Part shown: positions 3,814 to 34,143 of the stretch, piece by piece | How positions within the stretch are numbered: the stretch's first letter is position 1 | Layout of the letters: every line of letters begins with the position of its first letter | Program-made: the position numbers and the translations under genes | NCBI GenBank assembly: GCA_001804705.1 | Contig: MHAY01000090.1 | Coordinates: 1-44,046 of the forward strand | DNA from: Ignavibacteria bacterium RIFOXYC2_FULL_35_21 | GTDB taxonomy: Bacteria; Bacteroidota; Ignavibacteria; Kapaibacteriales; UBA2268 | DNA: 44,046 bases | Reading direction: 5' to 3' | The notes under the pieces: model-generated | Databases searched by the model: none | What the model saw: the letters and a program-made list of their open reading frames with translations, nothing else | What the model was told of the DNA's origin: nothing

Positions 3814-3864
3814 ACGATTATTTATTATGCGATATTTACATTCGTAATTCGTAATTGATTATTA

Positions 3865-9529: not shown

Positions 9530-9590
9530 AATACAATCCCTCTTAATTGGAGAAAATAATTAGACTTTAAAATTACGAAATAATATTTAA

Positions 9591-9776
9591 AAAAATAATT
9601 CATCCCCACTGTAACATTTTGCCATTTTTATTGTTATTACATTAAAATAAAAGCTATTTCAAATATTAATATTCTGGAGTTGTTATGAAAAATTCATTCT
9701 TCGTACTTGTATTAATTTATTTTTTGCTCTCAATTCATTTTAAAACTTTTTCCCAATTAACAAACCAATGGGAAAT
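9591..9776 (+). repeat. Duplicated promoter, leader and signal-peptide block, copy 1
   Basis: Non-coding upstream DNA with the core CATCCCCACTGTAACATTTT, plus the first 92 coding bases of the following gene. The block recurs at 11841-12027. The 92 coding bases are identical in both copies and the upstream part differs by only a few bases or single indels. The upstream core occurs a third time at 14041-14091. Confidence 0.85.
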
Positions 9777-11760
9777 TGCAGATTCTGAGAAAATTCTATA
9801 TTCAACTTATCGTTCTGTTAATGGGAATATGTCAGGTTATGACGAAAATGATATTGTAGTTTTTGGTGATGTTTTTCCATATCTTGATCCCCATAAAAAT
9901 GAATATAAAATAAAAATATTTAATGATAAGGGACAAAATAATAAAATTATTTATCATGATTCAATTAATATCAATGATTTGTGGTATTCCATATCACACC
10001 CTTCAAAAAATCTAATAGTTGTAGTTGGAGATTCAACATTTTTTCAAGGTAAATTTAAATATGGTCCAACTACTAAAGATTGGTACTTATATTTTGCTCT
10101 TTTATTATTATCTACCGATGGAGGCACAACCTGGCAAAGAAACATTTTGGATTCAAACAAACAATTTGTAAATGTATCAATGTGTGATAGTATAAATGGT
10201 ATTATTTTACAAATAGATAAACATAATTATTACAACCAAAAAGAATTCTTTTTTGACAGCATATTGATAACAAACAACGGATGGAAAACATATAAAACAA
10301 TACCAGTTCCGGAAAACGTTCCCACTGATTATGGTTGGTGCTTATCCTCACAAAATTTTTTCTTGTTATGTTATGACTTGGATATAAAAAGAAGCTATTT
10401 ATATAAAACTTATGATACTGGTAATACATGGATAAAAACAGCTTATTTTGATGAGAATGTGGAAGTCCGTGATATTAAATTTATAAATGATAAAAAGATT
10501 TTTGTTGCAGGTGGAAGACAAGTAAAGAAATATAGTACTCTTTATGAACCTGTTATTTACAGAAGCAATGATGGTGGCGATTCCTGGGAGGAATGTAATT
10601 ATGTTTATGGAGAAAAAGAAGAAGATAGTTTTTCATTAAATAGCATTGATTTTTGTGACAGTCTTAATGGTATTGCTGTGGGAAGAGAAGGTATAGTATT
10701 AAGAACAAATGACGGTGGGGACACATGGAGCAAGGAATATGCACCTTATAAATATGCTGAATCATTTGCGTTTGATAACTTGCTATCAATTTTTTTCCCC
10801 AAGAAAGATTTTGCTTTTGCCTCATGGTTCAGAAATAATACAATGAAATTTGATAACAAAAAGATACTTTCAAAACCTCGATTTTATCGAATCAATAATC
10901 ACTTATTTCAATCATTAAATAATGTAATAATAAAATGGTCTTCAGTTGAAGGTGCAAAACAATACAGGTTAAAGGTTGATAGTACTTATTCAGGGGGTAA
11001 TTCACTTAATCAGGAATTCGAGAATCCGTTAATAGATACTACCCTTACAGATACAAGTTTCGTTATGAATAATCTTGAATATGATTATTTTTATAATTCA
11101 TGGGTTAAAGCTATTGCTGATACTATTGAGAGTGACTGGACATACTCTTACGATAGTTTCGGAGTTTTTAAAACAATTTCAAAAGATGATGAATTATACT
11201 CACCCGACTTGCTGTATCCAGCTTATGGCTCAAGGGTAGAGACAACAAAGCTAACATTGTTATGGAATAAAGTACCAACGGCTGATAGATACTCTATGAT
11301 AATTGAGAATGATAAAAACATTGATGTGATTAATGAATTTGTAACAGATACTTTCTATACAATAACGAATGTTGTACCATCGGCATTTTATTACGTTTCC
11401 TTAGGATCTTATCGTGCTGACATATATTCATATTTTGAATCGTGGTCTTATTTTGGCACGAGAGCTGTACTGACAGTTGAAGATGAATTAAAAAGTGAAA
11501 TACCGAAAATAATTACTTATCCAATACCCTTTTCTACTTCATTTAACATTGAATTTACAAATAATACTGCTACTAATGTTACATTAGATTTATTCGATAT
11601 TCTTGGATTAAAAATTTATACAAAGAATCTTGGATTTATTGAAAGTGGAACACATAAAATAAATATAGCACCTAATGTACAGTTAAGTCCTGGAATTTAT
11701 TTAGTAGCCTTAAGAAGTGGGGACATAGTACAATTTTTGAAGGTTATTAAAAGTGAATAA
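9685..11760 (+). CDS. Secreted BNR/Asp-box repeat protein with T9SS sorting domain (paralogue 1)
   Basis: A 691-residue predicted surface or secreted protein. A signal peptide ends near FSQ (residues 22-24). The middle carries about five Asp-box/BNR motifs of the form S/T-x-D-G-G-x-x-W (for example STDGGTTW, SNDGGDSW, TNDGGDTW), as in sortilin- or Ycf48-like beta-propellers. Two fibronectin III-like modules with the pattern IKWSSVEGA and LLWNKVPTA follow. The last 80 residues are a type A T9SS sorting domain (TYPIPFS start, LSPGIYLVAL core). A GGAG ribosome site precedes the ATG. It is a tandem paralogue of the next gene. The ligand or role is unknown. Confidence 0.88.
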   Translation: MKNSFFVLVLIYFLLSIHFKTFSQLTNQWEIADSEKILYSTYRSVNGNMSGYDENDIVVFGDVFPYLDPHKNEYKIKIFNDKGQNNKIIYHDSININDLWYSISHPSKNLIVVVGDSTFFQGKFKYGPTTKDWYLYFALLLLSTDGGTTWQRNILDSNKQFVNVSMCDSINGIILQIDKHNYYNQKEFFFDSILITNNGWKTYKTIPVPENVPTDYGWCLSSQNFFLLCYDLDIKRSYLYKTYDTGNTWIKTAYFDENVEVRDIKFINDKKIFVAGGRQVKKYSTLYEPVIYRSNDGGDSWEECNYVYGEKEEDSFSLNSIDFCDSLNGIAVGREGIVLRTNDGGDTWSKEYAPYKYAESFAFDNLLSIFFPKKDFAFASWFRNNTMKFDNKKILSKPRFYRINNHLFQSLNNVIIKWSSVEGAKQYRLKVDSTYSGGNSLNQEFENPLIDTTLTDTSFVMNNLEYDYFYNSWVKAIADTIESDWTYSYDSFGVFKTISKDDELYSPDLLYPAYGSRVETTKLTLLWNKVPTADRYSMIIENDKNIDVINEFVTDTFYTITNVVPSAFYYVSLGSYRADIYSYFESWSYFGTRAVLTVEDELKSEIPKIITYPIPFSTSFNIEFTNNTATNVTLDLFDILGLKIYTKNLGFIESGTHKINIAPNVQLSPGIYLVALRSGDIVQFLKVIKSE

Positions 11761-11782
11761 ATTAAGATTGCAATTATCTTGT

Positions 11783-11807: not shown

Positions 11808-11840
11808 ACTTATAAAAATTATTTCCTCATATTATACCAA

Positions 11841-12027
11841 AAAATAATTTTCATCCCCACTGTAACATTTTGCCTTTTTTTTTGTTATTACATAAAAATA
11901 AAAGCTATTTCAAATATTAATATTCTGGAGTTGTTATGAAAAATTCATTCTTCGTACTTGTATTAATTTATTTTTTGCTCTCAATTCATTTTAAAACTTT
12001 TTCCCAATTAACAAACCAATGGGAAAT
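11841..12027 (+). repeat. Duplicated promoter, leader and signal-peptide block, copy 2
   Basis: Second copy of the 9591-9776 block, giving this gene the same upstream DNA and the same first 31 residues as its paralogue. In addition, 11741-11891 (end of gene 1 plus spacer) matches 13941-14091 with about three mismatches in 151 bp. Confidence 0.85.
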
Positions 12028-13960
12028 CGTTGATACTACAGAATATTATAATTCAGAATATTTCAAAACAGATGTTAGAATAGCAGGTCCCGATAAAAAT
12101 GATTTTGTTGTCATAAGAGGATATAATTATAGGGATTATAAAAATAATCATTATATAATTACAAAATATACGGATAAAGCAAATAAAAGTGAAATAATTT
12201 ATTTTGATTCGGTAAATATATGTCAAAGATTTCTTTCAATAGCACATCCTTCAAAGAATTTGATTATTGTTGTTGGTGATACAAATGTTTTTTTAGGAAA
12301 CTTTGGGGATTGGAGTTATAAACAATTTGGTATGTTTATTATTTCAAATGATGGAGGATTATCATGGCAAAGAAAGACTCTTGATTCGAATAGCCAATTA
12401 AGAAGTATATCAATGTGTGATAGTTTGAACGGAATAATTTTGCAAAAGGATTTTGATAATTATTACAATGTAAAAAATATATTTTATGATAGTTTAATAA
12501 TCACAAATGATGGATGGAATAGTTATAGAAAAATACCAATACCTGATAATGCAAATGTAGAAAATATTTATAGTTTGTCTTCAATTCAATTTTATTTGTA
12601 TTGTAATAGTCGTATTTTTTATTATACAGATGATGGAGGTATAACATGGAAAAAATCAAATTCGTTCGGTGCTAATGATATAAATGTTTACGGTGTAGAA
12701 ATTGTTAATGACAAAAAAATTATTGTATCTGCTAATAGACAAGTTAAAAAAAATAGTCTGGAATATGAACCTGTCATTTTTAGCAGCTATGATGGTGGTA
12801 TTAGTTGGCAAGAATGTAAAAGTATTTTTCAGGAAAAAATAGATGATATTTTTAGAATGAAAGGAATTAAATTTTGCGACAGCCTGAATGGACTTGCTGT
12901 AGGCCAAGAATGGACGATTTTAAGAACAAGTGACGGAGGAGTAACGTGGCAAAAGGAATATTCTCCATTTCTTTATCAAAGTATTAACAGTGATTATTTA
13001 CCCCAATATTTATTTTTTCCAAAAATAAATTTTGCAATTGCAATATGTTTTGATAATGGTATATTTAAATGTGAAAATAAAAAAATACTATCAAAACCAA
13101 AATTTGATTATATCATCAATAATAATCATCTACCATTAAATAATATCAAAATAAAATGGTCAAGAATAAACGGTGCAACTTCTTATAGAATCAAAATTCT
13201 TACAACTGATTATGATTTTGGCAAACCACTAATTGATACCATTTTAACAGATACAATTATTGTACTGAATAACCTAGATTATTACCATTTATATACATCA
13301 ATTGTTAAAGCTATTGGTGATTCAATTGAAAGTGATTGGAGTTTTGGATATGATGGTTTTGGCTCATTCTATACAAAACTAAAAGATAGTGAATTTTATT
13401 CGCCCGAATTGATATACCCGCCTTATGCTTCAAGAGTAGAAATATCAACAGTTAAATTATTATGGAATAATGAACAGAATGTTGATAATTATTTAATAAA
13501 AATTGAAAACAATAAAAATAGTGAAGTTATTAATGATTATGTAACTGATACATCATATACACTTTCAAATGTTATACCTGAAGCCTTTTATTATGTAACG
13601 TTAAAGTCTTTCCAGGGAACAAAAGGTGCGTCAACCACTTGGTCTTATTTTGCAAGGCGTGCTATTCTTGGCATTGAGGATGATTTAGTTAAAAATGAGA
13701 AATCAAATATAATAACTTATCCAATACCTTTTTCTAATTCATTCAACATTGAATTCACAAACAATTCTGTTACTAATGTCGCAATAGATTTATTCGATAT
13801 TCTCGGATTAAAAATTTATACAAAGAATCTTGGATTTATTGAAAGTGGAACACATAGTATAAAAATAGAACCTGATGCAGTGCTAAGTCCGGGTTGTTAT
13901 ATTGTTGCAATCAGGAATGGAACTAATGTAAGTTATTCCAAGGTTATTAAAAGTGAATAA
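11936..13960 (+). CDS. Secreted BNR/Asp-box repeat protein with T9SS sorting domain (paralogue 2)
   Basis: A 674-residue tandem paralogue of the 9685 gene. The first 31 residues are identical, including the signal peptide ending at FSQ. The body is clearly diverged but colinear, with Asp-boxes SNDGGLSW, TDDGGITW, SYDGGISW and TSDGGVTW, then two fibronectin III-like modules. The sorting domain (TYPIPFS start, LSPGCYIVAI core) contains a 70-bp stretch at 13787-13856 that differs from the paralogue at one base, while neighbouring bases differ freely. That mosaic pattern suggests gene conversion at both ends. The function of the propeller is unknown. Confidence 0.88.
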   Translation: MKNSFFVLVLIYFLLSIHFKTFSQLTNQWEIVDTTEYYNSEYFKTDVRIAGPDKNDFVVIRGYNYRDYKNNHYIITKYTDKANKSEIIYFDSVNICQRFLSIAHPSKNLIIVVGDTNVFLGNFGDWSYKQFGMFIISNDGGLSWQRKTLDSNSQLRSISMCDSLNGIILQKDFDNYYNVKNIFYDSLIITNDGWNSYRKIPIPDNANVENIYSLSSIQFYLYCNSRIFYYTDDGGITWKKSNSFGANDINVYGVEIVNDKKIIVSANRQVKKNSLEYEPVIFSSYDGGISWQECKSIFQEKIDDIFRMKGIKFCDSLNGLAVGQEWTILRTSDGGVTWQKEYSPFLYQSINSDYLPQYLFFPKINFAIAICFDNGIFKCENKKILSKPKFDYIINNNHLPLNNIKIKWSRINGATSYRIKILTTDYDFGKPLIDTILTDTIIVLNNLDYYHLYTSIVKAIGDSIESDWSFGYDGFGSFYTKLKDSEFYSPELIYPPYASRVEISTVKLLWNNEQNVDNYLIKIENNKNSEVINDYVTDTSYTLSNVIPEAFYYVTLKSFQGTKGASTTWSYFARRAILGIEDDLVKNEKSNIITYPIPFSNSFNIEFTNNSVTNVAIDLFDILGLKIYTKNLGFIESGTHSIKIEPDAVLSPGCYIVAIRNGTNVSYSKVIKSE

Positions 13961-13982
13961 ATTAAGATTGCAATTATCTTGT

Positions 13983-14165: not shown

Positions 14166-16535
14166 ATGTTTACAAAATTATTCTCACTGCTTTTGGCACT
14201 GGCTTTCATGGTGCTGAACACTACAAACGTATTTAGCAAAGAATTCAATCTTACGGAATTCAAAGGACAATTGCCCGAACTTCTCGGTGCAGGTAATGCC
14301 GGACAGGAATTCTGGCTGACCTTCAATCCCTGCTGGGAGAACGACAATATAAACAGTAACTTCTTGAAGCTGTATGTATCATCTCCGATTGCAACTATGG
14401 TAACAGTTGAAATCCCCGGTAAGGGATTCCTAACCCAGCAGATGACAGTCCCAAACGATATTATCGAATTTAACCTGCCACCCGACCTGGGTCAATGCTA
14501 CAGGAAAAGAGACATGGAACCACCATTGAAAGACACAGTATTCAATGGTTTTGGTATTCACGTCTATGCAGATTACCCGATTATATGCTATGGTGTGACA
14601 CGTTATCAATTCACCAGCGACGGCTACCTTGCAATTCCTGTGTCTTCACTTGGAAAAGAATATACTGTTGCGTCCTGGCCCGATGTATCGGATTACGGGA
14701 TACAATACCTGCCAAGCAATGCTTCAATAATTGCTGCTTTTGACCAGACAGAAGTTAACTTTACTCTCGGTGGTTCGAACAACACCAGGACAAGCGGCGG
14801 AATGATTCCGGGAGAAACAAGAACAGTTACTTTAAACGAAGGTGATGTATTTTTGGTTAGTTCCGCCGGGCAAAGAGCAGACCTGACAGGAAGCACAATT
14901 GTTTCTACTAAACCTATTTCGGTTATTTCCAGCAATTTCTGTGCTTATGTCCCTGAAATCACTCCAGCCTGCGATTTTTTAACAGAAATGGAAATTCCAT
15001 CAATGGCTTGGGGCAAGGATTATCATTACACTCCTATTTACGGCAGATTGAAAAATTCAATTATTAAAATCATTGCAAAAGAACCTGCAACTTCTGTTTA
15101 CAGAGATAATCTCCAAATTGCTACACTTAAAACTGCAGGAGGGTTCGAAAATGATGGCTGGATTAGACTGAGAGCGGATTTGGATGCTCCAAGGCCTATA
15201 GTATTTTCAGGCGATAAGCCGATTTATATTGCACAATTCAACACCGGGCAAGCCGATGATGGAGTTATTAGTGACCCTTTCCAGACTGTCCTTACCCCGA
15301 TTGAACAATATCAAAAAGAAATTATTTTTAATACACCCGGGATTAAAAATGGTTTGGGTTTCACGCAAAATTATATTAACATTGTTTATCCCTCACCTGG
15401 TGGAGATATTCCCGATGACCTGCTATTTGCTCAGGTAGTAGATGGTGAATTTGAATGGAAGCCATTAGAATTAAATTATGTTTTAAAATCATACAGATTC
15501 CCTGTTCCTGTTAATGGTATTTACTACAATGTGACAACACTGCAATTGCCCGGCGACGGAGTTTACAAAATCAAATCAAATGACCCGATGGCCGCTTATG
15601 CTTATGGCTTCTCGCCTTACGATTCTTACGGATTTCCGGCAAGTGCTGTCATTGCAGACCTGAACAAAGCGGATTTTACGCCTCCGGACCCGAAATTTTC
15701 AGTTTATGGTAACGGTACAATCGAAGGCGGCACTGTCGAGGATATGCCGCAAAGTGACGACAGGTCTAATCTCTCGATGATTGTGTTCCATCCTGATATG
15801 AGCGATAATTATTCTTTCAGCTATAATAATTTCATACCCGGTGATGACTCTTACACAAGCTGGAGAGCCAGCGTTCAGGATAACAAAAAAGATGCTCTTC
15901 TTGTGGCAACATTCTCCGACCGCAGAGGGAACGACACTACTATTGCAGTAAATTATTATGCTCCCAAATTTACTTTCTCGTCAGATATAGACTTTGGAAA
16001 AATGAAAACCGGTAATAATCCTAATGGAGAAACAACGATTTACAATGAATCAAGTAATGAAGGAACATTTACCGACTCATTAATTTTCAAATACGGTAAC
16101 CAGGGATTTGAGTTTACTGAATCTCCACTGATTGTGTTTATACCCGGAGCTGCGAGAAATGCCGGCATAAAATTCAAAGCAACTCAAGTCGGTGCATTTA
16201 AAGATTCGGTAGGCTTCTGGAGAGGCGGCACTGAAGATGAATTCTTTATCGAAGTCAGTGCAGAAGTAGTTAAATCCACATCTGTGGAAGAAGAGTTTAC
16301 GACACAATTTGATATTTACCCGAATCCTGCCGATGAGTTATTATTAATAACAATAAACAGCGAATCAACAAAACCTGATTTCATAAAGCTTGTTGACAAT
16401 TTCGGAAATGTTGTTGTTGAGATGAATAAGATTGAAGGAAATAAAATAAAAATCAAAACGAAAGAACTGCCAAGCGGAATTTATTTCCTGCAATTAGGAA
16501 ATATGGAAACGAGGAAGGTAGTGGTGGTGCATTGA
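14166..16535 (+). CDS. Secreted IgGFc-binding-like protein with T9SS sorting domain
   Basis: A 789-residue predicted extracellular protein. The signal peptide ends around NVFSK (residue 25). Residues from about 45 to 330 resemble the IgGFc-binding N-terminal domain found in many secreted FCB proteins, with an EFWLTF opening, repeated ISSN/TKPISV strands and paired cysteines. A long beta-rich middle leads to an ASH-like stretch near residues 600-700 (FSSDIDFGKM). The end is a type A sorting domain (IYPNPADE start, LPSGIYFLQLG, RKVVVVH). An AGGGG ribosome site precedes the ATG. The last 24 coding bases and the following spacer match those after the 18788 gene. IgG binding itself is not implied. 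Confidence 0.85.
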   Translation: MFTKLFSLLLALAFMVLNTTNVFSKEFNLTEFKGQLPELLGAGNAGQEFWLTFNPCWENDNINSNFLKLYVSSPIATMVTVEIPGKGFLTQQMTVPNDIIEFNLPPDLGQCYRKRDMEPPLKDTVFNGFGIHVYADYPIICYGVTRYQFTSDGYLAIPVSSLGKEYTVASWPDVSDYGIQYLPSNASIIAAFDQTEVNFTLGGSNNTRTSGGMIPGETRTVTLNEGDVFLVSSAGQRADLTGSTIVSTKPISVISSNFCAYVPEITPACDFLTEMEIPSMAWGKDYHYTPIYGRLKNSIIKIIAKEPATSVYRDNLQIATLKTAGGFENDGWIRLRADLDAPRPIVFSGDKPIYIAQFNTGQADDGVISDPFQTVLTPIEQYQKEIIFNTPGIKNGLGFTQNYINIVYPSPGGDIPDDLLFAQVVDGEFEWKPLELNYVLKSYRFPVPVNGIYYNVTTLQLPGDGVYKIKSNDPMAAYAYGFSPYDSYGFPASAVIADLNKADFTPPDPKFSVYGNGTIEGGTVEDMPQSDDRSNLSMIVFHPDMSDNYSFSYNNFIPGDDSYTSWRASVQDNKKDALLVATFSDRRGNDTTIAVNYYAPKFTFSSDIDFGKMKTGNNPNGETTIYNESSNEGTFTDSLIFKYGNQGFEFTESPLIVFIPGAARNAGIKFKATQVGAFKDSVGFWRGGTEDEFFIEVSAEVVKSTSVEEEFTTQFDIYPNPADELLLITINSESTKPDFIKLVDNFGNVVVEMNKIEGNKIKIKTKELPSGIYFLQLGNMETRKVVVVH

Positions 16536-16590
16536 AAACCTCACCCCCTGCCCCTCTCCGAGCGGAGAGGGGGGAAGTGAATAACGAATA
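16512..16590 (+). repeat. Gene-end and hairpin block shared with 20186-20264
   Basis: Contains the last 24 coding bases (RKVVVVH-stop), a CCTCACCCC...CCCCTCTCCG-AG-CGGAGAGGGG hairpin (16539-16575) and the bases GTGAATAACGAAT. The copy at 20186-20264 differs at four positions of 79. Hairpins opening CCTCACCCC and closing GGGGAG are dispersed in many bacterial genomes and may also act as terminators. Confidence 0.75.
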
Positions 16591-16634
16591 GTGATAAATT
16601 GAGGTTATAAATAATAATTTATTTCTATTATGAG

Positions 16635-18746
16635 ATGAAAATAATGAAAACTTTATTTATGAGTTTCGTGATTGTGGTAATTGCGCTTTTAAACACAATC
16701 AGCTTGAAATCTGATTCACAAGATTATTTGTTACAAACATTAGGCTTGGGGAGCGTAATTGAAACTCAATACAGTCCTGACGGAAAAACTATTGCCGGCT
16801 GCGGCACCAGGGGAATATTACTATGGGATGCGGAAACTTATGAATTAATGAAAATAATCGAATCGGAAGGAGAATCTGTAAATTCATTTGCGTGGAGTCC
16901 TGACGGCAAACTTATTGCTGCCGGTTATACTAAAAATGGAATCCATATACTTGATGTTAATACCGGAAAACTAATTCGCACTCTTAAGGGGCATACAAAA
17001 TATTCTTTAAGTGTAAGCTGGAGTCCTGACGGCTCAAAGCTCGCTTCAGGTGGAAAAGACAGTACTGTTAAAATCTGGGATGCCGCCACCGGTGTATTAT
17101 TACATAATATTACAGGTTATAATGAAATAGTTACGAGTGTTTGCTTCAGTCCCGACGGTACAAAGCTCGCATCCGGTTCGGGTGACAGGAGTATAAAAAT
17201 ATATGATGCAAATACATGTGGAGAAATTCGTAATATTCACGTTTACAGTAAATGGGTCAATTGTGTAAGTTGGAGCCCTGACGGTACCATGATTGCTTCC
17301 GGTGAAAGTGATAATACAATTAAGCTATGGGATGCTAGTACCGGTGAAAAAATACGTACTTTTTCGGGTCATAAAGAAGCTGTATATTACTTAGACTGGA
17401 GCCCTGACGGTACTATGATTGTGTCAGGGTCAAATGACAAAACTTCGATGATTTGGGAAGTTACAAGCGGGGATGCGATTGATACACTCACTGGTCATAG
17501 TGATTATTTGTGGAGCGTAAGCTGGAGTCCTGATGCTTCTAAAATTGTAACCTGCTCTCTTGACAGGACTATTAAAATATGGGATGCTTCAAGTGGGGAG
17601 CTAATCAAAACATTATCAGTATTTTCAAAAAGTGTTTTTTGCATAGACTGGAGCCCGGACGGTAGTAAATTAATCTCAGCACATGCTTATGATGAGTTTA
17701 ATCTATGGGACCCAATAACAGGAGAAGAAATAAAATCCTTTATTTATGAGAATGTACCCCACTTTAATATTAATTTAAATTGGAGTCCTGACATTAATAA
17801 ATTTGCAATTACAAAAAATTCGAAAATAATTCAAATCAGAGAGGTAAATTCAGGTAATGTATTAACAGAAATTGAAGGACATAAATACGGCACTTCCGAT
17901 TTACGGTGGTACAAAGATGGTAATATGTTGGCAACGTCAGGAAGTGATAGTGCTGTTAATATTTGGGACTGTAAAACATGGACATTAATAAAAATTTTAA
18001 AAAAACATAATAAATGGGTATCGGAAATCAGTTGGAACCCGCTTGGGAATAAAATCGCATCTGCTTCAGGTGACAGCACAATTAAAATTTGGGATGTTGA
18101 AACAGGTGATGATTTACTTACTTTATACGGTCAAAATGCACCTATATCCTGCATCGACTGGAGTTGTGACGGAAAAAAAATTGTTAGCGGAGACCAGGAT
18201 AGTATATTAATTATTTGGGATGCTAATGATGGAAAGAAACTGAAAACACTTTATGGCCATCATGATGTTATTCTTAGTGTCAGATTCAGCCCAAACAGCA
18301 AATACATTGCATCCGGCGGGTATGATAATTTAGTTAAAATATGGGACTCTGAGAGTGGAAAAGAAATTTATTCTTTCGCAGGACATCCTTACCTTGTGTA
18401 TGGAGTACGCTGGAACCCAGATGGGAGCATGCTTGCTTCATGCGGCTGGGATGGATTAATCAGAATCTGGGATACAGGTAAAATTAAATTGGATACAACT
18501 TCACATGAAATTCCAATCTTTCCAAATCCCGCAGATGAATTTATTTCGATTTATTTACCTGATAAGACAAAAAAGATTGAATTTATCTGGCTCTTCGATT
18601 TGATTGGAAATTTAGTTTATGAGAACAGAAATATATATGAGAATAATTATACGTTTATTACGAGAGAGCTCGCCAGTGGTATGTATGTAATTCGAATCGG
18701 CTACGATGGCGGTCTCTTAAATAGTAAAATTTTAATTGTTCATTGA
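16635..18746 (+). CDS. Secreted 14-repeat WD40 protein with T9SS sorting domain (paralogue 1)
   Basis: A 703-residue protein with an N-terminal signal (about residues 1-26; the Met at residue 4 is an alternative start). Fourteen WD40 repeats of about 42 residues follow, each with a W/F-S-P-D-G turn and an I-W-D end, predicting two seven-bladed propellers. The last 75 residues are a sorting domain (FPNPADEFISIYL start, LASGMYVIRIG). It is colinear with the 22433 gene, with which it shares the bases coding NPADEFISIYL exactly, but the end of its sorting domain (LLNSKILIVH) differs from the RKVVVVH type. Probably a surface or secreted scaffold; partners are unknown. Confidence 0.88.
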   Translation: MKIMKTLFMSFVIVVIALLNTISLKSDSQDYLLQTLGLGSVIETQYSPDGKTIAGCGTRGILLWDAETYELMKIIESEGESVNSFAWSPDGKLIAAGYTKNGIHILDVNTGKLIRTLKGHTKYSLSVSWSPDGSKLASGGKDSTVKIWDAATGVLLHNITGYNEIVTSVCFSPDGTKLASGSGDRSIKIYDANTCGEIRNIHVYSKWVNCVSWSPDGTMIASGESDNTIKLWDASTGEKIRTFSGHKEAVYYLDWSPDGTMIVSGSNDKTSMIWEVTSGDAIDTLTGHSDYLWSVSWSPDASKIVTCSLDRTIKIWDASSGELIKTLSVFSKSVFCIDWSPDGSKLISAHAYDEFNLWDPITGEEIKSFIYENVPHFNINLNWSPDINKFAITKNSKIIQIREVNSGNVLTEIEGHKYGTSDLRWYKDGNMLATSGSDSAVNIWDCKTWTLIKILKKHNKWVSEISWNPLGNKIASASGDSTIKIWDVETGDDLLTLYGQNAPISCIDWSCDGKKIVSGDQDSILIIWDANDGKKLKTLYGHHDVILSVRFSPNSKYIASGGYDNLVKIWDSESGKEIYSFAGHPYLVYGVRWNPDGSMLASCGWDGLIRIWDTGKIKLDTTSHEIPIFPNPADEFISIYLPDKTKKIEFIWLFDLIGNLVYENRNIYENNYTFITRELASGMYVIRIGYDGGLLNSKILIVH

Positions 18747-18787: not shown

Positions 18788-20209
18788 ATGAAAAAGATTA
18801 CTTTTTTTATAAGTACAATTATGGTTTTAATTGGATTGAACAGTATCAATATCTTTGCATTTGATATAAAAATTAAAAGCGAATGTATCGGTACTGCAAT
18901 AATAAATGTAACCTACTATGACTTTGGTGATATACCGTTAAATTCATCAGCAAACGGTACAATTGAAATTAGAAATTTGGGAACTGTTGATTTAATTATT
19001 ACTGGATACACAGGTCCGAGACAAATCTCAATCTTCATTCCGGACCTTATTATTAATCCTAATAATCCGCTTAGGCTCTACCCCGGTCAGGTATATACTT
19101 ATGAAGTCATATTTTTACCGATTGATACTATTATGTACACCGATTCAATGTTTTTCATTAGCAATTCTGAAAAGAACATCAGTGTTGACAGCGTAGGAGA
19201 CCTGAGAGGAAGGGGAATCAAGCCTGACCTCATAGCAAACGGTTATGACTGGGGTCGCAGAAGAATAGACAGACAGAATTTCCCTTCTGGACCATATAGC
19301 CTGAACAATGCCATTCAGATTACAAATGGAGGAACAATGGACGTTACGATATATGATATAAATATCATAAGCGATGTCAACGGGACTGCCTTTGAGTTTA
19401 ACAGAGGACTATTAACAAACAGGACGATTCATCCTAAAGAGACAATACATGTACCAGTTATTTTCCATCCTACAGTACCGGGACCACATGAATTAATCAT
19501 TGAATATGATAACACTGCAATGAGTACAACTCAGACTATATTGAGAGGAATCGGTACAGTACCTCAAATCGAAACATCGGATTATGATTTTGGTACAACA
19601 ATATTGAATGATTACCCAAATCCAAATTACAGACTCATAAGGTTTACTAACAAATCTGAGTCTGACTGGATTTATGGCGATTCTGTTACTATATTTGATT
19701 TGATTTCCAAGCCAAATGGTAATGAAATTTCTACAGACCTTGTGAACTGGGGAACAGAAGGTTTCAGATATGATAAAGCTGCATTTACTTTCCCGCTAAA
19801 GCTTGCTCAGGGTGAATACATTGAATTTGATGCTCAATTTGTTGCAGGCAAGGAAACACAATCCATAGCCTATATAAAATCATACAGCGATGCTGAGGAA
19901 GAAGTTACTTCAAAATGGACAGGCATAGGAATTATAGATGGAGTAGTTGAAAATCCCAACATTGAAATTGATATTGTATTGAATCCCAATCCGGCAGATG
20001 ATTTTCTTTCAATAAATTTACAAGATATAGCCCGCAAGACTGATTTTGTGCGGCTTTTCGATTATTATGGGAATATGGTTTATGAAAAAAATAATATCAA
20101 TGAAAATAATTTTAAGTTCAATATAAGCAAACTTGCGAGCGGTATGTATATGCTGCAAATCGGCAGTGGCGGCAGGATATTGAGCAGGAAAGTAGTGGTT
20201 GTGCATTGA
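18788..20209 (+). CDS. Secreted ASH (choice-of-anchor) domain protein with T9SS sorting domain
   Basis: Predicted secreted protein of 473 residues. The start at 18788 was chosen because it is preceded by GGGAGTT and opens directly into a signal peptide (MKKITFF); the frame stays open upstream to 18743 but would add 15 charged and Cys-rich residues. Three ASH/Hydin-like beta-sandwich modules are visible, each with an (Y/W)DFG-like or YDWG strand and a later N-x-G/T turn (near YYDFGDIPL, GYDWGRRR, DYDFGTTIL). The final 75 residues are a sorting domain whose DNA is 98% identical to that of the next gene, although the bodies of the two proteins are unrelated. Confidence 0.86.
   Translation: MKKITFFISTIMVLIGLNSINIFAFDIKIKSECIGTAIINVTYYDFGDIPLNSSANGTIEIRNLGTVDLIITGYTGPRQISIFIPDLIINPNNPLRLYPGQVYTYEVIFLPIDTIMYTDSMFFISNSEKNISVDSVGDLRGRGIKPDLIANGYDWGRRRIDRQNFPSGPYSLNNAIQITNGGTMDVTIYDINIISDVNGTAFEFNRGLLTNRTIHPKETIHVPVIFHPTVPGPHELIIEYDNTAMSTTQTILRGIGTVPQIETSDYDFGTTILNDYPNPNYRLIRFTNKSESDWIYGDSVTIFDLISKPNGNEISTDLVNWGTEGFRYDKAAFTFPLKLAQGEYIEFDAQFVAGKETQSIAYIKSYSDAEEEVTSKWTGIGIIDGVVENPNIEIDIVLNPNPADDFLSINLQDIARKTDFVRLFDYYGNMVYEKNNINENNFKFNISKLASGMYMLQIGSGGRILSRKVVVVH
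20009..20209 (+). repeat. T9SS sorting-domain cassette, copy A
   Basis: A 201-bp coding block encoding most of the sorting domain, from SINLQDIARKTDF to the stop. Copy B at 22189-22389 differs at four bases. The last 59 bp recur at 24471-24529 with one change. Confidence 0.9.
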
Positions 20210-20212
20210 AAA

Positions 20213-20248
20213 CCTCACCCCCTGCCCCTCTCCGAGCGGAGAGTGGGG
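20213..20248 (+). repeat. CCTCACCCC-type hairpin
   Basis: Second copy of the GC-rich hairpin found after the 14166 gene, with stem CCCTCTCCG/CGGAGAGTG. It follows the stop of the ASH gene directly and could act as a terminator. Confidence 0.65.
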
Positions 20249-20316
20249 AAGTGAATAACGAATGGTGAATAATGAATAATTGAGGATAAATATTATTATT
20301 ATTTTTGAGGTGAATT

Positions 20317-22389
20317 ATGAAAAAATTATTTACACTTTTTATTTTGTTATTTTCATTATTAACAGCCTATTCTCAGTGGCAGCAACTAAAAGGTCCGCAA
20401 GGAGGTTCAATAAAACTGATTGAAGTTAATGATGAACTTATTTTTGCCTGTGGTGGTAGCGGGAGGTTATTCTATTCAACCGATAATGGCGAGAATTGGT
20501 TTCAAGCATATTCAAAAAACATGTTTGGTAAAATCACATACCTTGATTTGTCGGGAAATAAAATATATGCAAGTGCAAGTGATGGAGTATATGTTTCTTC
20601 AGATACAGCAAAAAGCTGGACACTAACCGGTATGGATTTATACATGAAAAATATAGTAAGTGTTGCAGTTACAGGTGCCAATATTTTTGCAGCAGTTTAT
20701 GGAGAAGGTGTATATAAGTCAACTAATGAAGGACAAGACTGGATTGAAACAGATTCTGGACTGACTGATAAAAATATTAATTGCTTTGCTATTAAAGATA
20801 ATCAAATATTCGCCGGAACCAATAATGGTATTTATTTATCTACTGATTTAGGAGATAGCTGGTCTTTTGTTGATAGCGTTTTATTATATAAAACTATTAA
20901 TAATATAGTTGTAAATGGAGATAATATATATACAAGTACATACGGATGGGGAATATTTATGTCATCTGATATGGGACAAAGCTGGAGTTCAATAAGCGGG
21001 GATTTGCCATATATTTATGTACAGGCACTTACTGTAAAAGAAAATAATATTTATGCAGGAACATCGAACGGTATATTTCTCTCTACAAATAATGGTCAAA
21101 ACTGGACTGAGATGAATGATGGTTTATCATCAAAAAATATTAATTGTCTTGCAGTTAAAGGTGACAACATATTTGCAGGAACAACATTAGCAGGAATTTA
21201 CAAATCTTCTGATAAGGGGCAAAACTGGATATGGAAAGGCCTGACCGAATCTAATGTTTTTGAACTTGCTGTTGACAATGGTAATCTTTATGCAGCAGGA
21301 TATAAATCGGGAATGTCAATTTCAACTGATGATGGTATTACCTGGACTTCCTTAAACTCAGGACTTCCGGCGGACCCTTCTATCCGGACTTTTAAGATTA
21401 ACGGAAATAACATTTTTGCAGGTATGTATTCGAATAAAGATGGTGTTTATGTTTCTACTGACTTAGGAGTAATCTGGAAGGTCGCGAAATCAGGATTACC
21501 AAGTGCAATTGTATTGGATTTCTTAATTCTAGGGAATAAGGTATTCGTAGGTACAAGTTTAGGAATTTATCTATCAACCAATAATGGTAGTAATTGGACT
21601 TTAGCAGACTCCTTTCTCAGCAGCTTTAGCATTACAGCTTTAGTAAAGAATGGAGCCAATATTTATGCAGGAACTGAACAAGGTTTATTTTTATCAACTG
21701 ATGCTGGTGGAAGCTGGTCAATTGTAGACTCAACAATGAAAGATTCATTAACAATATATTCTCTTTCATTTAGTGAAAATAAAATTTTTGCAGGTACAAA
21801 AGATAAGGGGATATTTTATTCTTCAGATAATGGCATTTCCTGGATAAATATAAATTCTAACTTAAACATCCTAAGTGGAATTTATAACATTGTTATATAT
21901 GGTAAGAATATATTTATAGTATTTGGCGGTTATGCGGACCAAGGTTGGAGATGCCCCGGTCTATTTTTATCAACGGATAATGGTGAAAGTTGGACTGAAA
22001 TTAATTCAGGTATGACAAATACCTGTATTGGTAATTTAGCTATTAAGGACGATTATATTTTTGCATCCACTGCCATAGGTGTTTTCAAAGCAAAACTAAG
22101 CGATTTTGAATTAAACGATATCGAAGAAAAGCCAGTTACAAATAGTGATGGTTTTTATATTTCTCCCAATCCTGCTGATGATTATATATCAATAAATTTA
22201 CAAGATATAGCCCGCAAGACTGATTTTGTGCGGCTTTTCGATTATTATGGGAATATGGTTTATGAAAAAAATAATATCAATGAAAATAATTTTAAGTTCA
22301 ATATAAGCAAACTTGCGAGCAGTATGTATATGCTGCAAATCAGCACTGGCGGCAGGATATTGAGCAGGAAAGTAGTGGTGGTGCATTGA
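20317..22389 (+). CDS. Secreted multi-Asp-box beta-propeller protein with T9SS sorting domain
   Basis: A 690-residue protein with a signal peptide ending near AYSQ (residue 19). About thirteen Asp-box motifs occur at roughly 43-residue intervals (STDNGENW, STNEGQDW, STDLGDSW, STNNGQNW and so on), alternating with N-x-I-F/Y-A-G-T strands, as in sortilin/BNR propellers. It probably folds as one or two large propellers. The sorting domain begins at ISPNPADDYISINL and is the copy B cassette. GAGGTG precedes the ATG. It is distantly related in motif, not in overall sequence, to the 9685/11936 pair. Role unknown. Confidence 0.87.
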   Translation: MKKLFTLFILLFSLLTAYSQWQQLKGPQGGSIKLIEVNDELIFACGGSGRLFYSTDNGENWFQAYSKNMFGKITYLDLSGNKIYASASDGVYVSSDTAKSWTLTGMDLYMKNIVSVAVTGANIFAAVYGEGVYKSTNEGQDWIETDSGLTDKNINCFAIKDNQIFAGTNNGIYLSTDLGDSWSFVDSVLLYKTINNIVVNGDNIYTSTYGWGIFMSSDMGQSWSSISGDLPYIYVQALTVKENNIYAGTSNGIFLSTNNGQNWTEMNDGLSSKNINCLAVKGDNIFAGTTLAGIYKSSDKGQNWIWKGLTESNVFELAVDNGNLYAAGYKSGMSISTDDGITWTSLNSGLPADPSIRTFKINGNNIFAGMYSNKDGVYVSTDLGVIWKVAKSGLPSAIVLDFLILGNKVFVGTSLGIYLSTNNGSNWTLADSFLSSFSITALVKNGANIYAGTEQGLFLSTDAGGSWSIVDSTMKDSLTIYSLSFSENKIFAGTKDKGIFYSSDNGISWININSNLNILSGIYNIVIYGKNIFIVFGGYADQGWRCPGLFLSTDNGESWTEINSGMTNTCIGNLAIKDDYIFASTAIGVFKAKLSDFELNDIEEKPVTNSDGFYISPNPADDYISINLQDIARKTDFVRLFDYYGNMVYEKNNINENNFKFNISKLASSMYMLQISTGGRILSRKVVVVH
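22189..22389 (+). repeat. T9SS sorting-domain cassette, copy B
   Basis: Nearly identical to 20009-20209 (four differences in 201 bp), although upstream of the block the two genes share no obvious similarity beyond the NPADD motif. Confidence 0.9.
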
Positions 22390-22432
22390 TATTCAGTGAA
22401 TAATGAATAACGAATAATTGTGGATGTTAGAT

Positions 22433-24529
22433 ATGAAAACATTATATCTAAAAATGTTGGTAATGGTAATTGTACTGATAACAAACATCAGTGTGGAATC
22501 TAAATCAATAGAATATTTGTTAATGACATTAGGCTTGGGAAACATTGTTGAAGTGCAATTAAGCCCGGATGGAAAAACATTAGCCAGTTGTGGCAGCAGA
22601 GGAATAATCTTTCGGAATGCTGAAAATGGTGATGTACAAAAAATTATTGAAACTCCAAACCAATATGTCGTAGCGATTGCATGGAGCCCTGACAACAAAA
22701 AAATTGTTTCAGGTTATGCTGATAATACGCTCGATATTTGGGATGCAAGTACAGGAACACTAATCCGCACACTTACAGGGCATAGTAATTATGTACTTAG
22801 TTTAAGCTGGAGCCCCGATGGAACAAAGATTGTTTCAGGCGGTACAGACAGTACGATTAAAATATGGGATTTTGAAAGCGGGACAATTCTACATACCATC
22901 ACAGGTCATACTAATAAAGTTACAAGTGTAGCATGGAATCCTGACGGTACTATGATTGCATCCGGAGCGGGTGATAGAACTTTAAAGCTTTGGAATGCTG
23001 CTACCGGTGGAGAAATCCGAACTATTTACGGGTATAGTGCGTGGGTAAATTGTGTAAGCTGGAGCCCGGACGGTACTAAGATTGCTTCAGGGGAAGGTGA
23101 GAATAGTATAAAGCTCTGGGATGCAAGTACAGGAGGAGTGATAAAATCTCTTTACGGACATAAAGAAAGTGTTTATAGCGTAAGCTGGAGCCCGAACGGT
23201 ACTAAGATTGTTTCCGGGTCAATGGATAATACAGCAATGATTTGGGATGTGGGCAGCGGAAATGTAATTGATACACTCATTGGACATAGTGATTATGTAA
23301 CAAGTGTAATTTGGAGCACTGATGGAACTAAGATTGTCACTGGGTCATTGGATAGATTGATAAAAATTTGGGATGCGGGCAATGGAGAAGAAATTCGCAC
23401 AATATACGGAAATACTAAAAGTGTTTGCAGCATTGATTGGAGCCCTGATGGAAGTAAGATTGCTTCAGGTCATGCTTATGATATGATTAAAATATGGGAT
23501 GCAATTACCGGAGAAGAAATCAGAACCTTTTTTATGGATAATATAGGTGAAATTAGTTTAAGCTGGAGTCCCGATGGAAGGAAAATAGCTTCGGAATACA
23601 TCGGAAATATAATTCAGATTTGGGATGCAAATACCGGGGAAATAATTTTAAACCTCACGGGACATAAATATGGAATCAACAAAATTCGCTGGAGCCCTGA
23701 TGGAAATATGATTGGCTCATGTGCCGGTGACACTACAATAAAGATTTGGGATAGTAAAAACGGAAGTTTAAAACGCACAATCAAAGGACATAAAAAATGG
23801 CTTCAGGATATTTGTTGGAGTCCTGATGGTGCAAAGATTGCATCCGGTTCGGGTGATAGTACAATTAAGATTTGGGATGTCAATACAGGGAATTTGATTT
23901 CCACTCTTTACGGTCATAAAGGACCTGTCTATAGTATTGACTGGAGTCCCGATGGAAGAAAGATTGCAAGTGGTTCTGAAGATAAAACTTTAAAAATTTG
24001 GAATGTTGTAAGTGGTGAAGCGATATTCACTCTTTCGGATTATAAGTACCTGCTGTATAGCGTAAAGTTTAGTCCGGACAGTAAAATCATTGCAACCGGC
24101 TCATGGGATAATAAAGTTATGCTATGGGATGCAGACAGTGGTAAAGAAATACGTACTTATCTTGGGCACACTAATTTAGTGTATGGTGTGAGCTGGAACC
24201 CCGATGGCAGCAAGCTCGCATCCGGCTCATGGGATGGATTGATTAGAATTTGGGATACAGGAATGAAAAAACCGGATACCGTTACTTATCAAATACCTGT
24301 ATTTCCAAATCCCGCAGATGAATTTATTTCGATTTATTTACAGGATACAACCCAAAAGATTGAATATGTTCGGCTCTTCAATTTAGTTGGGAAATTAGTT
24401 TTTGAGAACATTAATATAGATAGATATGACTATATAATTAATACAAGCGAGCTTGCAAACGGAATGTATGTGCTGCAAATCGGCAGTGGCGGCAGGATAT
24501 TGAGCAGGAAAGTAGTGGTGGTGCATTGA
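22433..24529 (+). CDS. Secreted 14-repeat WD40 protein with T9SS sorting domain (paralogue 2)
   Basis: A 698-residue protein from the ATG at 22433, which opens directly into the signal peptide (MKTLYLKMLVMV); an ATG at 22424 is the alternative. Fourteen very regular repeats (SWSPDGTKIASG...IKIWDASTG) predict two seven-bladed WD40 propellers. It is colinear with the 16635 gene. The sorting domain starts like that paralogue (FPNPADEFISIYLQD) but its last 59 coding bases (24471-24529) are those of the ASH and BNR genes, so the domain is a hybrid at DNA level. The function is probably extracellular binding; no catalytic motif was seen. Confidence 0.88.
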   Translation: MKTLYLKMLVMVIVLITNISVESKSIEYLLMTLGLGNIVEVQLSPDGKTLASCGSRGIIFRNAENGDVQKIIETPNQYVVAIAWSPDNKKIVSGYADNTLDIWDASTGTLIRTLTGHSNYVLSLSWSPDGTKIVSGGTDSTIKIWDFESGTILHTITGHTNKVTSVAWNPDGTMIASGAGDRTLKLWNAATGGEIRTIYGYSAWVNCVSWSPDGTKIASGEGENSIKLWDASTGGVIKSLYGHKESVYSVSWSPNGTKIVSGSMDNTAMIWDVGSGNVIDTLIGHSDYVTSVIWSTDGTKIVTGSLDRLIKIWDAGNGEEIRTIYGNTKSVCSIDWSPDGSKIASGHAYDMIKIWDAITGEEIRTFFMDNIGEISLSWSPDGRKIASEYIGNIIQIWDANTGEIILNLTGHKYGINKIRWSPDGNMIGSCAGDTTIKIWDSKNGSLKRTIKGHKKWLQDICWSPDGAKIASGSGDSTIKIWDVNTGNLISTLYGHKGPVYSIDWSPDGRKIASGSEDKTLKIWNVVSGEAIFTLSDYKYLLYSVKFSPDSKIIATGSWDNKVMLWDADSGKEIRTYLGHTNLVYGVSWNPDGSKLASGSWDGLIRIWDTGMKKPDTVTYQIPVFPNPADEFISIYLQDTTQKIEYVRLFNLVGKLVFENINIDRYDYIINTSELANGMYVLQIGSGGRILSRKVVVVH
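24471..24529 (+). repeat. T9SS cassette tail, copy C
   Basis: Matches the final 59 bp of copies A and B (one mismatch to A), coding LQIGSGGRILSRKVVVVH. Upstream of 24471 the gene instead follows its WD40 paralogue. Confidence 0.85.
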
Positions 24530-31041: not shown

Positions 31042-31054
31042 TTGCTAAAGGTCC

Positions 31055-31204
31055 ATGAAAAGAAAATTATTCATAATTGTATTATTGATAGCTCTTGCTT
31101 TTCAATATGCCAAAAGCCAGCCTGAGAGCGGCTGGATTGACAAAGGCAAGACAATACTTACTTATGGAGATGAATTATTAAGAAATCCCATTTGCGAAAA
31201 CTGA
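31055..31204 (+). pseudogene. Decayed duplicate of the preceding T9SS cargo gene
   Basis: A 49-codon remnant starting MKRKLFIIVLLIALAF. It copies the signal peptide and the ESGWIDKG segment of the 29626 gene, then jumps to a stretch like SILTFGDDQFLRK (here TILTYGDELLRN) and stops. An internal deletion of roughly 23 codons and loss of the rest of the gene explain it. The spacer after it shows no more of the paralogue. Confidence 0.8.
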
Positions 31205-31256
31205 ATTATAGAATTATTTTTGATAAATCATAATAATAGAATAATATAAATAATTC

Positions 31257-31562
31257 ATGAAAAAAATAATTATTAAAAAATTACGTTGGAACAAAGAGAA
31301 AAATGAGATTTTAAAGAAGAAGAGAAATATATCTTTCGAAGTTGTTGCTGACTTTATTAGTAAGGGTAATATTATTGATGATATTGTTCATCCAAATAAG
31401 ACAAAATTTCAAAATCAAAAAATATTTATTGTTGATGTTAATAATTATATCTATTTAATCCCTTATATTGAAACAAAAGATGAAATATTTTTAAAAACGA
31501 TATATCCAAGTAGGAAATTTACTCAGTTGTATTTGTATGGAGACAGTGATGAAGAAAAATAA
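31257..31562 (+). CDS. BrnT-family (DUF497) toxin
   Basis: A 101-residue protein with the BrnT layout: LRWNKEKNEILKKKRNISFE (the W-x-x-x-K-N...H/N-x-x-S/F-E opening), a VVADF helix, a central beta-sheet and a late basic TIYPSRKF strand. BrnT proteins have a RelE-like ribonuclease fold and are encoded before their antitoxin, as here. It overlaps the next gene by 14 bp. The sequence is more diverged than usual. Confidence 0.75.
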   Translation: MKKIIIKKLRWNKEKNEILKKKRNISFEVVADFISKGNIIDDIVHPNKTKFQNQKIFIVDVNNYIYLIPYIETKDEIFLKTIYPSRKFTQLYLYGDSDEEK

Positions 31563-31860
31563 AATAGTAGATTGGAGTGAACTCGCTCTCGACAAAGATG
31601 AAATAGAACTTCTTGTATCAGTTGAAAAAGGTGAATGGAAAAGTACTGGTAATATTGAAAAAAGAAGGGATGAATTAAGGAAGTTTTTTAATCCTGATTA
31701 TGCCACTGATGAAGACTCCGGCAAAATTACATTAAAAATCCCAAAAAAGGATTTAGCTAATTTAAAATTGAAAAGCAAAAAATTGGGGATTAGTTATGAT
31801 GTACTAATTTCAAAACTTATTCATAATTACGCTCAGAACAGAATAAATGTAAGTTTATAA
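31549..31860 (+). CDS. CopG/BrnA-like antitoxin
   Basis: A 103-residue protein from the ATG at 31549, chosen because GGAG lies 6 bp upstream; an ATG at 31537 is also in frame. The C-terminal half has the strand KITLKIPKKDLANLKLKSKK followed by LGISYDVLISKLIHNYA, the helix-turn pattern of CopG-type antitoxins that pair with BrnT-like toxins. It should repress the operon and neutralise the toxin. Confidence 0.78.
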   Translation: MKKNKIVDWSELALDKDEIELLVSVEKGEWKSTGNIEKRRDELRKFFNPDYATDEDSGKITLKIPKKDLANLKLKSKKLGISYDVLISKLIHNYAQNRINVSL

Positions 31861-34083: not shown

Positions 34084-34143
34084 TAAATATAGGTAACATA
34101 GGAATCGCCGCACCCACACTTATACCGAAGGGATTATATATTA

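What the first reader, a model, noticed from the sequence alone, without database searches (positions are those of the whole stretch)
20009..24529. Nearly identical T9SS sorting-domain DNA on unrelated cargo genes
The last 201 bp of the ASH gene (20009-20209) and of the Asp-box gene (22189-22389) differ at four positions although the bodies of the two proteins are unrelated. The WD40 gene at 22433 begins its sorting domain like its WD40 paralogue but its final 59 bp (24471-24529) are the same cassette with one change. The 14166 gene shares its last 24 coding bases and downstream hairpin with the ASH gene. Silent sites are conserved too, so selection on protein alone does not explain it. Recent cassette exchange or gene conversion of secretion tags among cargo genes is the simplest reading.
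Basis: seen in the sequence. Interest (0 to 1): 0.78.

Follow-up and report, generated by a model that had tools for sequence, protein, structure and literature searches.

The report
Export tags copied between unrelated genes
In this bacterium, neighbouring genes for unrelated exported proteins carry almost the same DNA for the tail that gets them exported, apparently because the tail is repeatedly copied from gene to gene, and related species show the same thing at other genes.

Summary
The last 201 bp of the ASH gene (20009-20209) and of the Asp-box gene (22189-22389) differ at 4 sites, although the bodies show no blastp similarity. The second WD40 gene is a mosaic whose last 59 bp match ASH at 58 of 59 (permutation p 0.00035). 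The 14166 gene shares an 88-bp tract across its stop codon (93%). The tail is a type IX secretion (T9SS) sorting domain by profile, predicted fold and solved relatives.

Protein selection does not explain it: ASH/Asp-box tail pS is 0.10, while tails of their orthologues in two congeners reach 0.50-0.80, and tail trees reject the orthologue groupings (AU p 3.6e-5 and 0.0036). It recurs in other tag classes, in congeners, and in a 6-contig relative where two unrelated neighbours share 243 identical coding bases up to their stop codons. Control genes outside the clusters keep their own orthologue's tail (6 of 6 pairs, 5 genes).

Best reading: repeated short-tract gene conversion of the tag, so export tags evolve in concert, apart from cargo. 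Both ingredients are known; this form, not found in my literature searches, is a new variant.

The parts
20009..20209 (+). Near-identical CTD cassette, ASH gene copy (stop codon included)
   Evidence: 4 differences in 201 bp from the Asp-box copy; identity drops on both sides
22189..22389 (+). Near-identical CTD cassette, Asp-box gene copy
   Evidence: the other three DNA matches of the ASH copy in the genome are 77-80%
24471..24529 (+). 59-bp tract in the second WD40 gene (about strands 6-7 of the CTD)
   Evidence: 58 of 59 identical to ASH, 35 of 59 to its WD40 paralogue; mosaic p 0.00035; strand positions transferred from the model of the ASH tag
24304..24470 (+). WD40-type first part of the CTD of the second WD40 gene
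   Evidence: first 140 bp: 111 of 140 to the WD40 paralogue, 99 of 140 to ASH; next 27 bp equally like both
18521..18746 (+). CTD of the first WD40 gene (reference parent in the mosaic test)
16512..16599 (+). Tract across the stop codon of the 14166 gene: last 24 coding bases plus downstream palindrome
   Evidence: 93% over 88 bp to 20186-20273; palindrome 16536-16580 folds at -23.8 kcal/mol, z -2.87
20186..20273 (+). Matching tract across the stop codon of the ASH gene with the downstream palindrome
   Evidence: fold of 20210-20254 z -1.92
14166..16535 (+). IgGFc-binding-like cargo gene with T9SS CTD
   Evidence: Pfam IgGFc_binding 8.3e-53, Por_Secre_tail 9.7e-12
16635..18746 (+). WD40 cargo gene A with T9SS CTD
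   Evidence: orthologue in congener G002 at 83% aa
18788..20209 (+). ASH/choice-of-anchor-D-like cargo gene with T9SS CTD
   Evidence: choice_anch_D below its cut-off; orthologues G003 75% aa, G002 63%
20317..22389 (+). Asp-box (BNR/sortilin-like propeller) cargo gene with T9SS CTD
   Evidence: orthologue G003 70% aa
22433..24529 (+). WD40 cargo gene B with mosaic T9SS CTD
9685..11760 (+). Tandem paralogue 1: 5' end and first part of the CTD nearly identical to paralogue 2
   Evidence: third-position identity 0.90 at aa 1-40, 0.85 at aa 624-663, 0.40-0.65 in the windows between and 0.57 after aa 664
11936..13960 (+). Tandem paralogue 2
   Evidence: N-terminal 30 codons pS 0.00, CTD 0.32, body 0.61

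Best explanation
The 3' ends of T9SS cargo genes, which encode the roughly 70-80-residue C-terminal sorting domain, act as a recombining pool. Short homologous stretches (the conserved PNPxD entry motif, the beta-sandwich, the last strands) allow non-reciprocal copying of DNA, that is gene conversion, from one cargo gene to another. Tracts run from tens of bp (59 bp in WD40 B) to about 240 bp; in the clearest cases they begin at the domain start and end at the stop codon. Neighbouring tags in a cargo cluster are thereby homogenised repeatedly while the cargo bodies stay unrelated or keep diverging. At 20009-24529 the newest event equalised the ASH and Asp-box tags, and a shorter tract overwrote the end of the WD40 B tag. 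Shown here: shared tracts, sharp boundaries, low silent divergence, tree discordance, recurrence. Inferred: the molecular step (presumably RecA-dependent conversion), direction of copying, and any advantage, such as keeping many tags matched to one translocon.
For: Low silent divergence confined to the tag. AU tests reject vertical descent of the tags for ASH (p 3.6e-5), Asp-box (0.0036), Asp2 (9.8e-5), IgASH (5.6e-50) and a separate beta-helix class (0.00037). Unrelated neighbours pair in the tag tree in G000, G002 and G003 with starred support. Exact 20-mers shared by unrelated-body CTD genes of G000: 324 with both copies in the last 270 bp, 1 mixed, 3 in bodies, though bodies hold 248,541 bp against 40,500; without pairs inside C90/C36, 118, 1 and 3. 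Congeners G001-G003: 6 of 41 near (<6 kb) unrelated-body pairs reach 80% tag DNA identity against 0 of 1024 others; in the regions chosen from CTD coordinates alone, 3 of 25 against 0 of 523. G035: 6 of 41 near against 4 of 1404 far (all, ORFs of 150 aa or less left out). One G035 pair is identical over 243 coding bases ending at different stop codons. Mosaics inside genes. For control genes outside C90/C36, the orthologue's tail is the best match in 6 of 6 pairs (5 genes).
Against: In G000 itself the proximity enrichment comes from this one cluster: 4 of 32 near unrelated pairs reach 65%, all in contig C90, and 0 of 21 elsewhere; three of the five control genes also have a tagged neighbour within 6 kb without sharing tags. 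Some sharing is between tags on different contigs, so adjacency is neither needed nor sufficient. The IgGFc tags do not reject vertical descent (AU p 0.229), the three WD40 tags form a clade across G000 and G002 (100/99), and the G001 tags do not group together. In G035 many distant unrelated tags are also alike (62 of 1404 at 65%), which an old common tag family explains as well. No strains within the species, reads or experiments were available, so conversion is inferred from pattern and cannot be told from other non-reciprocal copying.
Confidence: 0.82

Rival explanations
1. Single tag-capture events: each cargo acquired its tag once by illegitimate recombination or duplication (terminal reassortment), and similar tags simply reflect recent captures without continuing conversion.
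For: Bodies are unrelated, and cassette boundaries coincide with the domain start and the stop codon. This would also look like a cassette.
Against: The same body orthologues carry tags in other species, which suggests an existing tag was overwritten: ASH and Asp-box orthologues in G003 have tags that pair with each other and not with those of G000. A partial tract of 59 bp within a CTD and patchwork arrays need copying into an existing tag.
Confidence: 0.12
2. Assembly artefact: the repeated tail was collapsed or mis-joined in a fragmented assembly.
For: G000 is in 105 contigs, and the 201-bp repeat could exceed a short read; sequencing method unknown.
Against: The copies differ at four sites. 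The order IgGFc - ASH - Asp-box - OmpA is kept in G003, with another tagged gene inserted. The pattern recurs in G002 and G003 and in a 6-contig genome on a 1.4 Mb contig.
Confidence: 0.03
3. Strong selection on protein or on codons (mRNA structure, codon bias) keeps the tags alike.
For: The CTD is presumably constrained and the window is AT-rich (35% GC).
Against: Orthologous tags of the same genes reach pS 0.50-0.80; same-codon use is 64 of 65 against a 44% background; three of the four differences change the protein.
Confidence: 0.02
4. Tandem duplication of a whole gene followed by replacement of the body, the tag staying in place.
For: Tandem paralogues do exist (9685/11936; WD40 A/B).
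Against: DNA after the stop should then be shared, but it is not for ASH/Asp-box (3 of 24) or for the G035 pair (8 of 30).
Confidence: 0.04

Closest known systems
Terminal reassortment of type III secretion effectors (Stavrinides et al. 2006; seen here only in the reference list and in passages of PMC6460904; the paper itself is not held)
   Same: A secretion signal at one end of the protein is shared between unrelated effector bodies.
   Different: There it is the N-terminal T3SS signal, read as making new chimeric effectors (recalled). Here it is the C-terminal T9SS tag, and existing tags appear to be overwritten repeatedly, silent sites included.
Domain rearrangement and allelic exchange in Porphyromonas gingivalis surface proteins (PMC5266723, passages read)
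   Same: T9SS cargo reshaped by recombination; the paper invokes gene conversion.
   Different: In the passages read, the varying units are adhesin and catalytic modules and alleles between strains; exchange of the CTD between unrelated cargo is not described there.
Concerted evolution of repeated genes by gene conversion (rRNA operons and similar; recalled)
   Same: Within-genome copies resemble each other more than orthologues.
   Different: Here only one short domain is homogenised across genes whose other parts are unrelated.

Membership tests
T9SS type A sorting domain (TIGR04183 / PF18962) | Profile match above the curated cut-off at the C-terminus | tested here: met
   TIGR04183: ASH 44.5, Asp-box 37.1, WD40 B 40.0, WD40 A 38.6, 14166 gene 37.8 bits against cut-off 23; PF18962 matches for three of these five (the WD40 lists were cut at 25 families)
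T9SS type A sorting domain (TIGR04183 / PF18962) | Ig-like beta-sandwich like solved CTDs | tested here: met
   AlphaFold of the ASH tag: pLDDT 86.3, seven strands; Foldseek best hits 8qb1 mirolase CTD (TMq 0.83) and 8glk NucA substrate in the T9SS complex (TMq 0.78); phmmer 8glk_D E 1.6e-5
T9SS type A sorting domain (TIGR04183 / PF18962) | Translocon and sortase genes in the same genome | tested here: met
   SprA_N and Peptidase_C25 (PorU-like; orthology to PorU not tested) in G000; other components not searched
T9SS type A sorting domain (TIGR04183 / PF18962) | Directs secretion through the outer membrane | not testable with these tools
   needs a secretion assay
Gene conversion / concerted evolution | Within-genome copies more alike than orthologues | tested here: met
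   met for ASH, Asp-box, Asp2, IgASH and the beta-helix class; not shown for IgGFc or WD40 tags
Gene conversion / concerted evolution | Sharp tract boundaries and mosaics | tested here: met
Gene conversion / concerted evolution | Low silent-site divergence within the tract only | tested here: met
Gene conversion / concerted evolution | Non-reciprocal transfer by homologous recombination | not testable with these tools
   no progenitor strains or recombination mutants
Terminal reassortment | Same terminal signal on unrelated bodies | tested here: met

The most novel reading that the evidence does not exclude
In this clade the T9SS tag is a common-pool element. In genomes where at least 150 tags were scored, tags, and in some families also signal peptides with their upstream DNA, are continually overwritten from one another, so that the two export ends of many cargo genes evolve as a within-genome population separate from the cargo. 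This would let many cargoes follow changes in a single translocon together and let new bodies gain a working tag.
Probability: 0.3. Interest if true: 0.78.

Novelty: new variant of a known kind. Interest (0 to 1): 0.62.

Why it matters
The genomes examined here hold at least 150 scored sorting domains each (G000, G002, G003, G035) that presumably share one export machine. If tags are homogenised by recombination, then trees or classifications built on the sorting domain do not reflect cargo history, and tag similarity within a genome is not evidence of cargo relationship. It also gives a direct way to ask how many substrates co-evolve with one translocon: compare tag and body divergence in closely related strains.

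Tried and rejected
Codon or protein constraint: rejected by orthologue silent divergence and same-codon statistics. Simple proximity rule: only partly true; in G000, 0 of 21 near unrelated pairs outside C90 share tags, and some shared tags lie on different contigs (C75/C103, C32/C34/C58). Replacement of the 14166-gene tag relative to its orthologues: suggestive at DNA level (52-54% to the congeners' tags), but vertical descent is not rejected (AU p 0.229), so not claimed. Downstream palindrome as a cassette border: it is dispersed (11 matches to the 88-bp query in G000, two of them to the coding part only), but the ASH/Asp-box cassette ends at the stop codon before it. Whole-body pS of repeat-rich propeller paralogues may be inflated by misaligned repeats, so those pairs are side evidence only. 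Structure: one prediction and one Foldseek search were made.

Limits of the counts. The G000 scan covers the 150 CTDs scored out of 291 first-look candidates; lists for G002, G003 and G035 were also cut at 150. 'Unrelated bodies' means no blastp hit at E 1e-3 after removing the last 88-90 aa; shared propeller or Ig folds are not excluded. The first counts let ORFs too short to have a testable body pass as unrelated; one search recounts without ORFs of 150 aa or less, and the report uses it (first counts: G000 4 of 35 and 16 of 10,695 at 65%; congeners 6 of 43 and 0 of 1061; blind regions 3 of 27 and 0 of 550; G035 6 of 44 and 5 of 1456, the last three at 80%). Regions were chosen from CTD coordinates, mostly where tagged genes are close; those likewise. 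Pairs within one cluster are not independent, so the Fisher values are descriptive. The control pairs are the 6 of 30 fetched loci whose best body hit reached 60% identity; two of them concern one G000 gene.

Papers: of ten searches, nine bore on T9SS or on tag conversion (one search was for terminal reassortment). Searches listed nothing; none of the listed papers shows exchange of CTDs among unrelated cargo in what I saw, which was titles and starts of abstracts, and passages of PMC5266723, PMC4804311, PMC7323717, PMC5808330 and PMC5714932. Of PMC6460904 I saw passages too; of Stavrinides 2006 nothing.
Full report
What is there. The window (one whole contig, C90, of a 4.15 Mb genome in 105 contigs) holds a run of genes for predicted exported proteins that end in a T9SS type A sorting domain: two YCF48/BNR paralogues (9685, 11936), an IgGFc-binding-like protein (14166), WD40 A (16635), an ASH/choice-of-anchor-D-like protein (18788), an Asp-box propeller (20317) and WD40 B (22433). 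The tag is genuine by sequence and fold: profile scores lie above the cut-off, the AlphaFold model of the ASH tag has seven strands at pLDDT 86, and its nearest solved folds include CTDs bound in the T9SS translocon (8glk, 8gl8, 8gl6) and the mirolase CTD (8qb1). SprA and a C25 peptidase are present in the genome.

The observation. ASH and Asp-box tags differ at 4 of 201 bp; outside, identity falls to chance within a few tens of bp upstream and at once downstream. The bodies give no blastp hit. WD40 B is a mosaic: its first 140 bp are closer to WD40 A, its last 59 bp match ASH at 58 of 59 (permutation p 0.00035). The 14166 gene and ASH share a tract over the stop codon (22 of 24 coding bases, then the palindrome), while their tags as a whole are only 62% alike in the codon alignment, with pS 0.64.

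Why selection does not explain it. Of 65 residues common to the ASH and Asp-box tags, 64 use the same codon; across unrelated-body CTD pairs of the genome with at least 10 shared residues the mean is 44% and the 99.9th percentile 82%. Over 72 codons pS is 0.10. Orthologues have tag pS of 0.50 (ASH G000-G002; body 0.68), 0.64 (ASH G000-G003; body 0.61) and 0.80 (Asp-box G000-G003; body 0.56). WD40 A against its G002 orthologue has body dS 0.37 but tag dS 1.64, so a tag can also change faster than its gene.

Comparison with sister genomes. The locus exists in three congeners (G001, G002, G003), with IgGFc and OmpA genes as anchors; a genome of the same family (G015) has the IgGFc gene. ASH orthologues were found in G002 and G003 and an Asp-box orthologue in G003. 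An ML tree of 25 tags pairs unrelated neighbours: G000 ASH+Asp-box (99/91), G002 ASH+Asp2 (100/100), G003 ASH+Asp-box (97/96), and at a second cargo locus G003b (99/99) and the three G002b genes (100/98). Orthologue clades are rejected for ASH (AU p 3.6e-5), Asp-box (0.0036), Asp2 (9.8e-5) and IgASH (5.6e-50), but not for IgGFc (0.229). The three WD40 tags form a clade (100/99), and neither the G001 tags nor the two G000b tags group by genome.

How general. Among the 150 CTDs scored in G000 there are 11,175 pairs. Leaving out 5 ORFs of 150 aa or less, 4 of 32 unrelated-body pairs under 6 kb apart reach 65% tag identity against 14 of 9968 others (Fisher p 2.6e-7), but all four are in this cluster and 0 of 21 elsewhere. 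Other unrelated-body pairs in G000 are C75_1353/C103_2574 (86%) and C32_31635 with four propeller genes (73-83%). Exact 20-mers shared between unrelated-body genes lie in the tags (324) and not in the bodies (3, plus 1 mixed); 15 gene pairs are involved. In the loci held from G001, G002 and G003 (74 CTD ORFs: 5, 40 and 29), 6 of 41 near unrelated pairs reach 80% against 0 of 1024 others; restricted to the 20 regions chosen from CTD coordinates alone, 3 of 25 against 0 of 523 (identities also). A beta-helix cargo class rejects vertical tag descent separately (bodies 72-78% aa, AU p 0.00037).

A better assembly. G035, same family but another genus, is held in 6 contigs at 98% completeness; its sequencing method is unknown. 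In 20 regions (56 CTD ORFs), 6 of 41 near unrelated pairs reach 80% against 4 of 1404 far pairs; two of the six share a gene, and one involves a 152-aa ORF. At 65% the far pairs are also frequent (62 of 1404), so this genome has a widespread tag class. One pair (L331), a beta-helix protein and a protein whose only Pfam match is the tag, carries 243 identical coding bases up to different stop codons (TAA, TGA), with unrelated DNA on both sides, on a 1.4 Mb contig. A tandem array of five 433-aa proteins (L341) shows patchwork identity between copies; one pair has 90% aa bodies but 64-71% DNA over the main tag windows.

Control. Six orthologue pairs outside C90 and C36 (5 G000 genes, body identity 69-75%, tag pS 0.49-0.73) have the orthologue's tag as best of 150 in 6 of 6 (0.66-0.80 against at most 0.58 for the runner-up). 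Three of these five genes have another tagged gene within 6 kb, so neighbours do not always exchange. For cluster genes the body orthologue's tag is best in only 3 of 8, with margins of 0.02-0.08.

Mechanism. The simplest account is gene conversion between 3' ends. Conversion needs local homology; bodies and downstream DNA share none, so tracts stop at the PNPxD entry motif and at the stop codon, as seen. Within related tags, tracts can be shorter, as in WD40 B, whose 59-bp tract corresponds to about the last two strands. Where downstream palindromes are shared, a tract can cross the stop codon, as for the 14166 gene and ASH. That the enzyme is RecA, which gene was donor, and that homogenisation is useful are inferences without direct evidence here.

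Both ends. The paralogues 9685 and 11936 have third-position identity of 0.90 over the first 40 codons and 0.85 over 40 codons of the CTD, but 0.40-0.65 between and 0.57 over the last codons. Four propeller genes on three contigs (C34, C58, C103) share roughly 250 bp of upstream DNA and the signal-peptide region at 80-84% identity, with N-terminal pS of 0.00-0.13 against body pS of 0.54-0.76. Repeat misalignment may inflate the latter. This is the basis of the bolder reading that both export ends evolve apart from the cargo.

Place among known things. Sharing of secretion signals between unrelated effectors is known for T3SS as terminal reassortment (passages; original not held), and recombination in T9SS surface proteins is known in P. 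gingivalis (passages). Nine searches bearing on T9SS or tag conversion listed no report of tag exchange between unrelated T9SS cargo, as far as listings and passages show. I rate it a new variant of a known kind.

Noticed in passing
9580-9786 and 11831-12037; 11479-11778 and 13679-13978: The two YCF48/BNR paralogues share nearly identical 5' DNA (93%) and similar CTD DNA (81% over 300 bp) while third positions between are at 0.40-0.65, as if both ends had been converted.
   Followed up: partly
L069:1742-5176 (G000 C36): A 1144-aa protein joins a 14166-like IgGFc part to an ASH-like part, bodies that are separate genes in the window.
   Followed up: partly
16536-16580 and 20210-20254; also matches on C36, C50, C64, C83, C13, C1: A palindromic GC-rich repeat is dispersed in the genome, in C90 and C36 directly after T9SS cargo genes.
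   Followed up: partly
G000 C34_19640, C34_97107, C58_69731, C103_11672: Propeller genes on three contigs share about 250 bp of upstream DNA and signal peptide at 80-84% identity.
   Followed up: partly
31051-31860: Looks like a decayed second copy of the 29614 gene: 99 bp of 5' DNA at 87% identity, followed only by short ORFs.
   Followed up: no
3470-3538, 3746-3814, 34070-34140: A repeat of about 70 bp occurs twice in direct orientation (94%) and once inverted 30 kb away (79%).
   Followed up: no
L341 (G035 C3:237500-245300): Five tandem 433-aa CTD proteins with patchwork identity between copies, a good natural case for mapping conversion tracts.
   Followed up: partly
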